Below, in pieces: positions 4,139 to 10,467 of a DNA stretch of 11,322 bases. This DNA is from an uncultured Bacillus sp. (GTDB lineage Bacteria; Bacillota; Bacilli; Bacillales; DSM-1321). The notes under the pieces are model-generated. The model was given only the letters and a program-made list of their open reading frames with translations, did not search any database and was not told the DNA's origin. Made by a program: the position numbers and the translations under genes. Positions within the stretch are counted from its first letter, which is position 1. Every line of letters starts with the position of its first letter. The DNA lies in assembly GCA_934215995.1 (NCBI GenBank), contig CAKQBC010000048.1, positions 1 through 11,322 of the forward strand, read 5' to 3'.

Positions 4139-4882
4139 TTACATCGCCATTCCGCCATCAACCGATAAGGTTTGCCCCGTCATATAGGAGCTGTCATCCG
4201 AAGCAAGGAAAGCCGCCACTTTCGCGATGTCCTCCGGATTCCCCAATCTTCCCAGCGGAATTTGGCTAAGCTGCTGATTCCGTACGTCCTCCGGAAGCTG
4301 GTCTGTCATATCCGTAGAAATGAAGCCCGGGGCGACAGCGTTGACGGTTATTCCCCTGGATGCGAGCTCCTTTGCCGCCGTTTTTGTAAAGCCGATTACG
4401 CCCGCTTTTGCGGCAACATAGTTAGCCTGTCCGGGGTTTCCGGTAATGCCGACAACACTCGCAACATTGATGATGCGCCCTTTCCTTTGTTTCATCATCG
4501 GCCTTGTAACGGCCTTCGTGCAAAGGAAAACGCCCTTCAGGTTTGTGTTGATGACCTGGTCCCACTCATCTTCCTTCATGCGCATCAGCAGATTGTCTTT
4601 TGTTATGCCTGCATTATTGACCAGAATATCTACCTTGCCGAATTCATCGATTGTCCTTTTAAGCATGGCAGCCACTGAGTCACTGTCTGAGACATCGCAT
4701 TGGACGGCAAACGCCCTGCTCCCCGACGACAAAATCTCTTCAACGACCGATTTCGCTTTTTCTTCATTTCCAGAATAATTGACGACGACATCTGCGCCCT
4801 GATTTGCCAGTTCCAAAGCGATTGCCCGCCCGATTCCGCGCGAAGCACCTGTCACAATAGCAATCTGCCCCTTCAGTTTCAC
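4139..4882 (-). CDS. fabG: 3-oxoacyl-[acyl-carrier-protein] reductase
   Basis: FabG reduces 3-oxoacyl-ACP to 3-hydroxyacyl-ACP with NADPH, the first reduction of each cytoplasmic fatty-acid elongation cycle. The 247-residue protein is a classical short-chain dehydrogenase, one residue longer than B. subtilis FabG. The Rossmann cofactor loop TGASRGIG is at 11-18, NNAG at 89-92 and Asn114 in the NTNLKGVF segment. The catalytic Ser142, Tyr155 and Lys159 (YVAAK) are all present. The C-terminal [13 protein letters not shown] is typical of FabG. Translation starts at a GTG whose last two bases are part of the fabD TGA stop (a GTGA overlap at 4882-4879), so the two are probably translationally coupled. 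A GGGGGA ribosome-binding sequence lies about 7 bases upstream. It belongs to the fapR operon. Confidence 0.97.
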
Positions 4883-5828: not shown

Positions 5829-6845
5829 TTATTCCTCCCCTTTGTCTTCTCTCCCTTTTTCAGCGTTCATATATGCCTGTATTGTCGGCGCCACTTCGTG
5901 CTCCACCATGATTTTGGCCTGGCGCACTGCATTGAACAAGGCATTTGCATTTGATGAGCCATGCGCTTTAATGACCGGAGCCTTCAAGCCGAACAATCCG
6001 GCGCCCCCGTATTCCGAGTAGTCCATTTTATCTTTGATCACTTTCAGCTGCGGTTTCAGGACAGCAGCCGCCAGTTTGCTTTTCAGGTCAGCCATCATTG
6101 CACCTTTGATCATTTTGAACATGGAAAGGGCTGTTCCTTCAACTGTCTTAAGGACCATATTGCCCGTAAATCCATCCGTGACAATGACATCCGCGACATT
6201 ATCCATAAGATCGCGGCTTTCGACGTTCCCGACAAAATGAATCGGTGCATCTTTGAGCAATTCATATGCGGCTTTAGTCAAGTCGGTGCCTTTTTTCTCT
6301 TCCGTACCGATATTCAGCAATCCAACCCGGGGCTTCTTGATCCCACGTACCTTTTCAGCATAGACAGAGCCCATGACAGCAAATTGCAGAAGATGCTCCG
6401 GCCTCGCTTCAGCATTCGCCCCTACATCAAGCAGGACAAACCCTTGTCCGTCCAATGTCGGCAGTGTCGGCGCCAATGCAGGCCTCTCTACCCCTTTGAT
6501 TCTCCCTACCACAAATAATCCGGCTGCCATCAGGGCGCCTGTATTTCCTGCCGAAATGCAGGCATCCGCATTGCCGTCCGCCACCTGCTGGGCAGCCAAG
6601 ACCATGGATGCCTGCTTTTTGCGTCTGACAGCCCGCACTGGTTCGTCTGTCGGAAGTATGACATCTTCCGTATGTATAATGGCAATATGGCTATGCCCTT
6701 CTGCAGGCAAATGTTTCTTGATTTCTGTTTCGTTCCCGACAAGTACGATCTCCAGATCCGGGAATTCCCTGACGGCTTTAACCGCACCTTCCACTATTTC
6801 CTTTGGAGCGTTGTCGCCGCCCATGGCATCAATTGCGATTCTCAT
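5829..6845 (-). CDS. plsX: Phosphate acyltransferase PlsX (acyl-ACP to acyl-phosphate)
   Basis: PlsX converts acyl-ACP and phosphate into acyl-phosphate, the donor that PlsY uses to make lysophosphatidic acid. It is a soluble enzyme that works at the membrane surface and links fatty-acid to phospholipid synthesis. From the ATG at 6845 the product is 338 residues (333 in B. subtilis) and begins with the family's conserved [15 protein letters not shown]. Other conserved blocks include [46 protein letters not shown] and [19 protein letters not shown]. The frame continues upstream to 6923, but those residues lie within fapR and do not resemble PlsX. An ATG at 6857 is a weaker alternative, with AAGG only one base before it. 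The chosen start has AAGGA about 11 bases upstream and overlaps the end of fapR by 17 bases, which suggests coupling. The C-terminal tail is Lys/Glu-rich. Confidence 0.96.
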
Positions 6846-7428
6846 TGTAGTCTTCATCCTTTTTCTCTGTATTCGATCTGTACATTTCAAAATGGCCCTT
6901 GAACACCAGGTCCTTCTGCACATAGCTGCATACTTCGACAGACGACCTGTTCGCAGGTGTATTCTCTTTATCTACCTTCGCTTTGGCGATCACTCTCTCC
7001 CCGGCTTTGACAGGGCGGGTGAACACGATATTCGCTTTAGCGGTGAGTGTGAATTCTTCATTCATGACCGCTACCGCAAGCGAGTTGGCCTGTGCAAACA
7101 GGTGGTGCCCTCGTGCGATCCCATTGCGGGTAAAAACATGTTCTTCTTTGACATCAAATATGGATATCGCGCTTTCATCAAGCTGTATATCTATTATATC
7201 GCCGATAACTTCTTCAATAGGCAATGCCCTGATTTCTTCACTATAATTATTTTCTGCCACATGCTTAATCCTCTCGCGCAATTCAGGAATCGATAATTCC
7301 ATGCGATCGAGGCGAATAGTCTGGACACTTACCTGGAACTTGTCAGCAAGCTCTTCATCTGTGACGAACGGGTTTGATTTTATTGTTTCTGTCAGCACTT
7401 GCTGGCGCATTTTTTTAGTAAGTTTCAT
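6829..7428 (-). CDS. fapR: Malonyl-CoA-responsive lipid synthesis repressor FapR
   Basis: FapR represses fatty-acid and phospholipid genes in Bacillus relatives. Malonyl-CoA binds it and releases it from DNA, so synthesis follows precursor supply. The 199-residue protein has an N-terminal DeoR-like helix-turn-helix (about 8-45, [20 protein letters not shown]), a linker helix ([14 protein letters not shown]) and a C-terminal hot-dog domain. The effector-site motif [17 protein letters not shown] is at 105-121 with Arg106, Gly107 and Asn115 in the same positions as in B. subtilis. It is about 11 residues longer than the B. subtilis protein, with an acidic and Asn-rich tail encoded partly within the plsX overlap. 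The ATG at 7428 is the first possible in-frame start, because a TGA lies just upstream. Its ribosome-binding sequence is an unusual TGGTGA six bases away, with GGAG further upstream. It should repress its own operon through the operator at 7448-7464. Confidence 0.97.
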
Positions 7429-7537: not shown

Positions 7538-9583
7538 TCAATCCAATTTATCCTGCCGAAGCCCTTCAATCGACTGAAGATAATCCCGTAAATACTTGTA
7601 TTCATCTTTTTCCCAAAAGACCGAAGAGTTGATGAGCGAAGCAGCATCATCCCTGGCAACTTCAAGCATCCTGTAATCATGGACCAGGTCCGCGACTTTG
7701 AATTCCGGCAGCCCGCTCTGTTTCTTGCCGAAGAAGTCGCCTGGCCCCCTCATTTCGAGATCCTTCTCGGATAGGACAAAACCATCGTATGTTTCAGTCA
7801 TAATACGCATCCGCTCTTTGCCGTTCTCCGATTTGGCATCGCTGACAAGGATGCAATAGGATTGATCGCTCCCCCTGCCTACACGCCCCCTTAATTGATG
7901 GAGCTGGGACAATCCGAAACGGTCCGCATCATAAATCAGCATGAAAGTGGCATTCGGGACGTTCACGCCAACTTCAACGACGGTCGTTGAAACAAGGACC
8001 TGCATATCATTCTGGCTGAAGTTTTGCATGACTTCATCTTTTTCTGACGGATGTAGCTTTCCATGCATGAGGCCGACATTATATTTCGGCGCAAAATAGT
8101 GGACTAGCATACTATGGATTTCCAAAGCATTCTGGAGATCCAGCTTTTCCGACTCTTCTATCAAGGGACATATGACATATGCCTGCCTGCCCTTGGCCAG
8201 TTCTTTTTCCATAAAACCAAGAACCCTGTCCATCATGTCATGTTTCGCCCAATAGGTTTCCACCCTTTTACGGCCGGCCGGCATTTCATCGATGATGCTC
8301 ACATCCATTTCGCCGAAGACGGTTATAGCCAATGTTCTCGGGATAGGTGTCGCTGTCATGAACAGGACATCGGGATTATCCCCTTTTTCCCGGAGAATCC
8401 GCCTTTGTTCAACACCGAATCTGTGCTGTTCATCCGTGATGACGAGGCCAAGGTCCCTGAAATGGACTTCATCCCCAATCAGGGCATGGGTTCCGATCAG
8501 TATATCAATTTTCCCTTCTTGCAACGATGCCAGCAGTTCCTTCCGCTTCTTCCCTTTCACAGAGCTTGTGAACAATGCGGATGTAACCCCGGTGCCCTGC
8601 AATAACTCCTGAATGGATTTGGCATGCTGTTCGGCAAGTATTTCAGTAGGCACCATCAGCGCCCCCTGGCGGCCTGCCGTCACGCATCCCAATAATGCGA
8701 TGGACGCGACCACAGTTGTACCTGAGCCCACATCCCCCTGCAGCAGGCGGTTCATTCGGTGAGGCGACTCCATATCCGATAGAATCTCTTCAACAACACG
8801 TTCCTGTGCGGACGTCAGCGGAAACGGCAAGGTCGATATGTACCGGGCAATTTCGCCGCGGTCGAGCACCAGGCTGCTGCCTTGGGAGGCTTCACGCTGA
8901 AGCTTCCTCAGAGCCTGCATTTTCAGCTGGAATAAAAGCAACTCCTCATACGCTAGCCTTCTCCTCGCCTGCTTAAGGTCTTCAGCGCCTTCGGGGAAGT
9001 GAATGGCCTTAAGGGCATCCATCTTCCCGAGAAGCCTATATTTATGCCGTATTTGCTCAGGCAAATTTTCCGGCACCAGAGGGGCATATTTAGAAAATGC
9101 CTGGCTGATGAATTTACGGATTGTTTTTACTGTCATGCTTCCCTTAACGGAATAGACAGGTTCAAAGCTTTGCTGCTTCATATTCGTGCCAATCTGGAAA
9201 TCAGTCGCCGTTATCGTCTGCCGGTTCCGGTCCCATTTCCCGGTGATTGTCACTGTCTGCTGAAGTTCGAATTTGCTCTTCAGGTACGGCTGGTTAAAAA
9301 ATACGACTGTAACCAAATACCGGCCGACAAGCAATTTGTACGTCAGCCGGTTTTTCTTCCTCCCGAAGTACATGACGGTCGGCACGCTGTGAATCACGCC
9401 TTCAACCGTCACCCTCTCTTCATGTGCAGTTTCCTCCAGGTCTTTCAGCCGGTAGTCATCATATCTGAAAGGATACCATTCAAGAAGGTCGCCTACTGTG
9501 AATATTCCCATTGCAGCAAATGTCTCTTCTGTTTCCTTCCCTACCCCTTTAAGGGCTGATACCGACTCCTGCAATGTATTCAT
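7538..9583 (-). CDS. recG: ATP-dependent DNA helicase RecG, with Walker A lysine replaced by threonine
   Basis: RecG remodels stalled replication forks and branched DNA by translocating on duplex DNA. The 681-residue length is normal (682 in B. subtilis). The N-terminal wedge/OB-fold domain covers about 1-230. Helicase domain 1 follows, with motif II DEQH at 384-387 and motif III TATP at 410-413. Helicase domain 2 has STTVVEVGVNVPNAT (532-546) and motif VI QLRGRVGRG (563-571). The C-terminal segment contains the RecG hallmark DLEMRGPGDFFGKKQSG. The striking oddity is Walker A, GDVGSGTT at 283-290: the invariant lysine is Thr289, coded ACA (8719-8717), one base from the lysine codon AAA. ATP hydrolysis would be expected to fail if this is real; sequencing error is an alternative. 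The ATG start overlaps the sdaAA stop (ATGA, 9583-9580), with only a weak ribosome-binding site, so it is probably coupled to sdaAA translation. A terminator follows. Confidence 0.96.
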   Translation of the reverse strand: MNTLQESVSALKGVGKETEETFAAMGIFTVGDLLEWYPFRYDDYRLKDLEETAHEERVTVEGVIHSVPTVMYFGRKKNRLTYKLLVGRYLVTVVFFNQPYLKSKFELQQTVTITGKWDRNRQTITATDFQIGTNMKQQSFEPVYSVKGSMTVKTIRKFISQAFSKYAPLVPENLPEQIRHKYRLLGKMDALKAIHFPEGAEDLKQARRRLAYEELLLFQLKMQALRKLQREASQGSSLVLDRGEIARYISTLPFPLTSAQERVVEEILSDMESPHRMNRLLQGDVGSGTTVVASIALLGCVTAGRQGALMVPTEILAEQHAKSIQELLQGTGVTSALFTSSVKGKKRKELLASLQEGKIDILIGTHALIGDEVHFRDLGLVITDEQHRFGVEQRRILREKGDNPDVLFMTATPIPRTLAITVFGEMDVSIIDEMPAGRKRVETYWAKHDMMDRVLGFMEKELAKGRQAYVICPLIEESEKLDLQNALEIHSMLVHYFAPKYNVGLMHGKLHPSEKDEVMQNFSQNDMQVLVSTTVVEVGVNVPNATFMLIYDADRFGLSQLHQLRGRVGRGSDQSYCILVSDAKSENGKERMRIMTETYDGFVLSEKDLEMRGPGDFFGKKQSGLPEFKVADLVHDYRMLEVARDDAASLINSSVFWEKDEYKYLRDYLQSIEGLRQDKLD

Positions 9584-10467
9584 TGCTTCTTATCCAGCGA
9601 CACCCCAAAGATTTTAGCTTCTAGCTCGCGTCCTGTCGGGGTTGCCGCCAGTCCTCCCTGCGCTGTTTCACGAAGGGCAACAGGCATAGTCTGACCTATT
9701 CTGTACATTGCATCAATGACTTCATCACAAGGAATGCGGCTTACGATCCCCGCAAGCGCCATGTCCGCAGCTACCACCGCATTGGATGCCCCCATTGCAT
9801 TCCTTTTCACGCAAGGCACTTCCACAAGCCCGGCAACCGGATCGCATACTAGTCCAAGCATGTTCTTCAGTGTGATCGCCATAGCCTCTGCGCATTGAGA
9901 CGGTGTTCCTCCCGCCATCTCGACAATCGCAGCAGCAGCCATGCCGGAAGCCGATCCGACTTCCGCCTGACATCCGCCGGCAGCCCCGGAAATGGACGCA
10001 TTATTTGCGACAACAAAGCCAAATGCACCCGATGTGAACAGAAAACGGACCATCTCTTCACGTGTCGGGTTAAGCTTGTTCTTCAAAGCAAATAATGTAC
10101 CCGGAACTACACCAGCCGAACCGGCTGTCGGTGTCGCGCAAATCGTTCCCATTGCGGCATTCACTTCATTCGTGGCAACAGCCTTGCTGACCGCATCCAA
10201 TAATATGTCCCCTGCAAGGCTTTTGCCGGAAGCAATATAGTTCTGCAGCAGGACAGCATCTCCACCAGTCAAGCCCGAATGGGACTTAACCCCTGCCAAT
10301 CCGCGTTCGATGGCCTTTTCCATAACGTCAAGATTCTTTTCCATTTGTGAAAAGACCTCTTCATAGGTCCGGCCTGTATATTCCATTTCTTGTTCAATCA
10401 TTATATCGGAAATTTTTTTATTTTGGCTTTCGGCCAATTCCACTAGTTCTGCAACATTCCTAAACAA
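9580..10467 (-). CDS. sdaAA: L-serine dehydratase, iron-sulfur-dependent, alpha subunit
   Basis: With SdaAB, this subunit deaminates L-serine to pyruvate and ammonia in the cytoplasm, using an oxygen-sensitive [4Fe-4S] cluster rather than pyridoxal phosphate. The 295-residue protein matches the B. subtilis subunit (300) along almost its whole length, including VATNEVNAAMGTICATPTAG at 97-116. The likely cluster cysteines are Cys166 (GGCQAEVGSASG), Cys208 (LVCDPVAG) and Cys219 (PCVKRN). The start is a TTG at 10467, supported by AAGGAGG eight bases upstream and by the conserved beginning MFRNV. The next gene, recG, overlaps the stop by 4 bases. Upstream, 104 bases separate it from sdaAB and contain three hairpins, one of which covers the ribosome-binding site and start codon, so translation may be controlled. 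Confidence 0.96.
   Translation of the reverse strand: MFRNVAELVELAESQNKKISDIMIEQEMEYTGRTYEEVFSQMEKNLDVMEKAIERGLAGVKSHSGLTGGDAVLLQNYIASGKSLAGDILLDAVSKAVATNEVNAAMGTICATPTAGSAGVVPGTLFALKNKLNPTREEMVRFLFTSGAFGFVVANNASISGAAGGCQAEVGSASGMAAAAIVEMAGGTPSQCAEAMAITLKNMLGLVCDPVAGLVEVPCVKRNAMGASNAVVAADMALAGIVSRIPCDEVIDAMYRIGQTMPVALRETAQGGLAATPTGRELEAKIFGVSLDKKQ

What the first reader, a model, noticed from the sequence alone, without database searches (positions are those of the whole stretch)
8702..8740. RecG Walker A lysine replaced by threonine (GDVGSGTT)
Seen: residues 283-290 read G-D-V-G-S-G-T-T, where RecG proteins have G-D-V-G-S-G-K-T. The codon is ACA at 8719-8717; a single base change at 8718 would restore AAA. 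The reading frame, protein length and the other helicase motifs (DEQH, TATP, QLRGRVGRG) are intact. Known: the Walker A lysine contacts the ATP phosphates in this helicase superfamily, and replacing it abolishes ATP hydrolysis in E. coli RecG, as I recall it. Inference: this strain may carry a catalytically dead RecG that could still bind forks, or there may be a recent point mutation, a lab-selected allele or a sequencing error. The lack of other decay argues for a recent event or a base-call error over long-standing loss.
Basis: partly seen in the sequence, partly recalled or inferred. Interest (0 to 1): 0.7.

Follow-up and report, generated by a model that had tools for sequence, protein, structure and literature searches.

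The report
RecG helicase missing its ATP lysine
An otherwise ordinary DNA-repair motor gene (recG) from a Bacillus-like bacterium carries one base change that swaps the lysine that normally grips ATP for threonine, which should switch the motor off; a 99%-identical relative keeps the lysine, so this is either a recent broken allele or a one-base reading error, not a new kind of protein.

Summary
Window 7538-9583 (minus) encodes a full-length RecG (681 aa). Residue 289, the Walker A lysine of RecG, is threonine (codon ACA at 8719-8717). It aligns with the lysine I count as residue 302 of a 693-residue solved RecG; E. coli K302A lacks ATPase and unwinding activity (PMC2764109, passages).

The change is isolated. 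Of 217 RecG proteins read, 216 have Lys and the window alone has Thr. The nearest (P0002, 99% identical) has Lys289. Of 204 positions at least 99% conserved in 209 relatives, the window departs at exactly one, K289T. The Thr pattern occurs in 0 of 397 genomes of the order, the Lys pattern in 394 of 397. RecG is no more divergent from its near twin than its neighbour FabD is.

Best reading: one recent A-to-C transversion giving a probably ATPase-dead recG allele. The database lists this exact protein on 3 contigs, which favours a real allele, but their independence is unknown. A consensus error remains a serious rival: A/C and G/T swaps are common Illumina errors (PMC3334598, passages). I found no evidence for a fixed lineage trait or new function. 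Low interest.

The parts
7538..9583 (-). recG, ATP-dependent DNA helicase/translocase, 681 aa, intact frame
   Evidence: ORF; NCBIfam NF008165 970.8 bits, cut-off 711; PDB 1gm5 and 9wm0 RecG best matches
8702..8740 (-). Walker A (motif I) segment QGDVGSGTTVVAS; relatives read QGDVGSGKT (214 of 217) or QGDVGAGKT (2 of 217)
8717..8719 (-). codon 289, ACA (Thr) where 20 family loci have AAA (19) or AAG (1) (Lys)
6829..7428 (-). fapR-like gene directly downstream of recG (context; name recalled, assigned from sequence and gene order)
   Evidence: ORF; relatives found in 20 of 20 loci
9580..10467 (-). sdaAA-like L-serine dehydratase alpha gene, overlapping the recG start by 4 bases (context; name recalled)
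   Evidence: ORF; relatives in 18 of 20 loci

Best explanation
The gene is the ordinary chromosomal recG of a Bacillaceae-like bacterium, in its usual neighbourhood. One recent A-to-C transversion (coding strand) replaced the Walker A lysine by threonine. The lysine normally holds the ATP phosphates; without it the protein should still fold and bind branched DNA but not hydrolyse ATP or move forks, so the allele is most likely loss-of-function in a non-essential repair gene, segregating in a natural population. Shown: the substitution, its isolation among the relatives examined, the intact remainder of the gene, Lys in the nearest relative. Inferred: that the base is real, that the protein is ATPase-dead, that it is expressed and binds DNA.
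For: Lys in 216 of 217 RecG proteins read, the window being the exception. P0002 differs at 7 of 681 residues and has Lys289; the other six differences fall at variable positions. Departure at 1 of 204 positions conserved at 99% or more; for FabD, 0 of 111. Thr pattern in 0 of 397 genomes of the order and 0 of 348 of the phylum (the two sets share at least five genomes); Lys pattern in 394 of 397 in the order. Of the 3 without it, one reads GDVGAGKT, one has a broken recG that still reads GDVGSGKT, and one has no match at E 1e-40 but a 38% identical one, probably Mfd. E. coli K302A lacks ATPase and unwinding and did not shorten the division delay of irradiated recG cells (PMC2764109, passages). 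BLM K695T is helicase-dead (passages). The exact protein is listed on 3 contigs.
Against: No reads were available, and it is not known whether the 3 contigs come from independent libraries. The change belongs to a substitution class often miscalled on Illumina instruments (A/C and G/T), and it goes from A/T to G/C, as did 118 of 136 error-prone positions in one study (PMC3334598, passages). I saw no other sign of relaxed selection in recG. I found no activity data for a Lys-to-Thr RecG.
Confidence: 0.57

Rival explanations
1. The threonine is a base-call or consensus error at one position; the organism's RecG is normal.
For: A near twin has Lys; the gene is otherwise fully conserved at its 204 most conserved positions. 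A/C and G/T swaps were the most frequent HiSeq substitutions in one evaluation (29.2% and 26.8%), and at 118 of 136 error-prone positions the change was from A or T to G or C, as here (PMC3334598, passages). The first stage picks out oddities, which enriches for errors (inference).
Against: The exact protein is listed on 3 contigs. The preceding base is A (minus strand) or T (plus strand), whereas the same paper finds errors preceded more often by G or C, and by G at 102 of those 118 positions. None of the ten ORFs is interrupted within the window and FabD has no departure at 111 conserved positions, so the contig is not generally error-ridden. The platform is unknown.
Confidence: 0.35
2. The protein is a maintained fork-binding pseudo-helicase, or Thr289 RecG still works, so the change is neutral or adaptive.
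For: The rest of the protein, including the other helicase motifs and the wedge domain, is conserved. A helicase-dead BLM (K695T) still raised promoter activity about as well as wild type in one assay, so a dead motor can keep other roles (PMC13358038, passages).
Against: No relative examined carries it: nearest relative Lys, 0 of 397 and 0 of 348 genomes with the Thr pattern. No change at any of the other 203 conserved positions that might compensate. K302A RecG and K695T BLM have no helicase activity.
Confidence: 0.08

Closest known systems
RecG, ATP-dependent DNA helicase/translocase (NCBIfam NF008165, TIGR00643; PDB 1gm5, 9wm0)
   Same: Full length, above the curated cut-off, same domains and motifs, same gene neighbourhood as relatives
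   Different: Walker A lysine replaced by threonine
E. coli RecG K302A (laboratory mutant)
   Same: Same motif lysine lost; the aligned position of chain 9wm0 is 302 by my count in the alignment (that this chain is E. coli-type is inferred from length and numbering)
   Different: Engineered alanine rather than threonine; reported to lack ATPase and unwinding (PMC2764109, passages), whereas this one is unmeasured
Human BLM K695T (laboratory mutant of another superfamily 2 helicase)
   Same: Lys-to-Thr; that K695 is the Walker A lysine of BLM is recalled
   Different: RecQ family, not RecG; described as helicase-dead (PMC4253442 and PMC13358038, passages)

Membership tests
RecG orthologue | Scores above the curated RecG model cut-off over the full length | tested here: met
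   NF008165 970.8 bits against 711, residues 2-672
RecG orthologue | Wedge domain plus two helicase domains and C-terminal region | tested here: met
   Precomputed Pfam PF17191, PF00270, PF00271, PF19833; accession meanings recalled
RecG orthologue | Conserved gene neighbourhood | tested here: met
   Relatives of each of the ten window genes found in the stretch of up to 17 kb around recG in 20 of 20 family loci (eight genes) or 18 of 20 (sdaAA, sdaAB)
Active ATP-dependent RecG helicase | Walker A lysine (GDVGSGKT) | tested here: not met
   Thr289; Lys in all 209 relatives aligned
Active ATP-dependent RecG helicase | Other positions conserved at 99% or more | tested here: met
   203 of 204 kept
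Active ATP-dependent RecG helicase | ATP hydrolysis and fork remodelling | not testable with these tools
   Needs purified protein
Lineage-fixed pseudo-helicase | Thr shared by related strains or species | tested here: not met
   P0002 (99%) Lys; Thr pattern 0 of 397 and 0 of 348 genomes. The window's own protein is listed on 3 contigs whose origin is unknown

The most novel reading that the evidence does not exclude
A natural population maintains an ATPase-dead RecG that binds stalled forks without remodelling them, a separation-of-function allele acting as a dominant fork cap.
Probability: 0.04. Interest if true: 0.6.

Novelty: new variant of a known kind. Interest (0 to 1): 0.2.

Why it matters
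If real, it is a natural counterpart of the engineered E. coli K302A allele and a snapshot of repair-gene loss at its first step, a single catalytic residue, before any other decay. If an error, it is a reminder that single-residue 'dead enzyme' calls from short contigs need read support. Either way it does not change what is known about RecG.

Tried and rejected
Lineage-fixed Thr: not supported by the nearest relative or the pattern counts. General decay or low assembly quality: not supported, no ORF is interrupted within the window and FabD departs at 0 of 111 positions conserved at 99% or more among 119 relatives. With only 20 more distant relatives, the ten genes show 53 departures at 1,801 invariant positions, 49 of them with a BLOSUM62 score of 0 or more; the four negative ones are smc W388M, fapR G171Q, recG K289T and recG G673E. 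G673E is not among the differences from P0002 and is not at a 99% position with 209 relatives. Faster evolution of RecG: not seen, 7 of 681 residues differ from P0002, and 5 of 315 FabD residues from P0218, whose contig also has 9,033 bases and is probably the same one.

Limits. The two RecG protein searches listed only the best 120 each: one search scored the 8,000 candidates sharing most words; (residues 272-312) had 3,846 candidates, 3,207 with E up to 0.001. A Thr RecG further down either list would not have been seen. The DNA patterns require Q-G-D-V-G, a codon of the form [AT][CG]N, and G before the tested codon, so divergent motifs are missed; the phylum run had no Lys control. In one search six of the 217 proteins (600 aa or less) were dropped. 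A second RecG copy in the same organism could not be sought, as no whole genome is held. The DNA of the P0002 contig was not obtained, so no dN/dS. The genome-contig scan gave 4 loci, only L001 (Bacillus testis, 73%) a near relative.

Literature. Searches for RecG Walker A variants listed no paper whose title or opening abstract reports a natural one; this covers only the open library and I read listings. PMC4224334 (passages) reports neutralisation of ruvA, not recG, in Wolbachia. PMC4027168 (passages) was looked at for null phenotypes.

Full report
Observation. Reading the minus strand of the window shows QGDVGSGTTVVAS at 8740-8702, with codon ACA for residue 289 at 8719-8717. The ORF 9583-7538 encodes 681 residues with no interruption. 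It is a RecG orthologue by NCBIfam (970.8 bits, cut-off 711), and the solved RecG structures 1gm5 and 9wm0 are its best matches. In the alignment, Thr289 lies opposite a lysine that I count as residue 302 of the 693-residue chain 9wm0, the number used for the E. coli lysine; that this chain is E. coli-type RecG is inferred from its length and numbering.

How unusual. A search of about 5.8 billion proteins gave the window's own protein, P0001, listed on 3 contigs, and P0002, 99% identical, from source 'ena' and without a name. P0002 has Lys289. Across the 217 proteins listed have Lys and only the window has Thr; both lists are the best 120 of longer ones. Aligning the 209 relatives longer than 600 residues gives 204 positions conserved at 99% or more; the window departs at one, K289T. 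The other six differences from P0002 (positions 3, 245, 358, 456, 498, 502) are at variable positions. In 397 genomes of the order of Bacillus testis, the Thr version of the DNA motif occurs in 0 and the Lys version in 394. Of the other three, one reads GDVGAGKT, one has a frame-broken recG that still reads GDVGSGKT, and one has no match at E 1e-40 other than a 38% identical one in a 1,190-residue frame, probably Mfd. In 348 genomes of the phylum, at least five of them also in the order set, the motif with Thr followed by Thr or Ser occurs in 0 (no Lys control was run there).

Surroundings. The window carries, on the minus strand, smc (cut by the contig end), rnc, acpP, fabG, fabD, plsX, fapR, recG, sdaAA and sdaAB; gene names other than RecG are recalled from sequence and order. 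Relatives of each were found in the stretch of up to 17 kb around recG in 20 of 20 family loci, or 18 of 20 for sdaAA and sdaAB. FabD, used as a control with 119 relatives, departs at 0 of 111 positions conserved at 99% or more, and differs from its near twin P0218 at 5 of 315 residues, as against 7 of 681 for RecG. So recG is not visibly evolving faster than its neighbour and the contig is not full of errors. With only 20 relatives, 53 departures at 1,801 invariant positions appear over the ten genes, four with a negative BLOSUM62 score, K289T among them. The nearest named species are Bacillus massiliigorillae (RecG 77%) and Bacillus testis (73%), so this is probably an undescribed relative.

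Mechanism. The Walker A lysine contacts the nucleotide phosphates (established knowledge). E. coli RecG K302A lacks ATPase and DNA unwinding, and its expression does not shorten the post-UV division delay that wild-type RecG shortens (PMC2764109, passages). The same Lys-to-Thr change is described as helicase-dead in human BLM (PMC4253442 and PMC13358038, passages); in the second paper the dead protein still raised promoter activity nearly as well as wild type, a reminder that a dead motor can keep other roles. A Thr289 RecG is therefore most likely unable to hydrolyse ATP. E. coli recG null strains live but are sensitive to mitomycin C (PMC4027168, passages), so a loss-of-function allele could exist in a natural population.

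Real or error. For real: the identical protein is listed on 3 contigs. I read the contig count as belonging to the exact sequence, because P0218 stands for 5 member sequences but 1 contig; this is an inference, and the three may share one library. For error: the substitution is A to C on the coding strand (T to G on the plus strand). A/C and G/T exchanges made up 29.2% and 26.8% of HiSeq substitutions in one study, and 118 of 136 error-prone positions changed from A or T to G or C (PMC3334598, passages). The same study found errors more often preceded by G or C (by G at 102 of the 118); here the preceding base is A or T depending on strand. The platform is not known. I lean to a real, recent allele at 0.57, with error at 0.35; these are judgements, not computed.

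Verdict. An ordinary RecG with one probably inactivating substitution. Interest is low unless reads and biochemistry show a maintained dead allele.

Noticed in passing
G075, G010, G015: Three genomes in the relatives' sets have recG split over frames, with stop codons in or between the pieces (G075 reads GDVGSGKT shortly after a stop): pseudogenes or error-prone assemblies.
   Followed up: partly
G243: A 2.8 Mb genome of the order has no match to RecG at E 1e-40 other than a 38% identical one that looks like Mfd; RecG may be missing.
   Followed up: partly
window 5829-6923 (-): The mechanical plsX ORF overlaps the end of fapR by 95 bases; the real start is probably the internal Met before RIAIDAMGG.
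   Followed up: no
window 9580-9583 and 4879-4882: Four-base overlaps between sdaAA and recG and between fabD and fabG suggest translational coupling.
   Followed up: no
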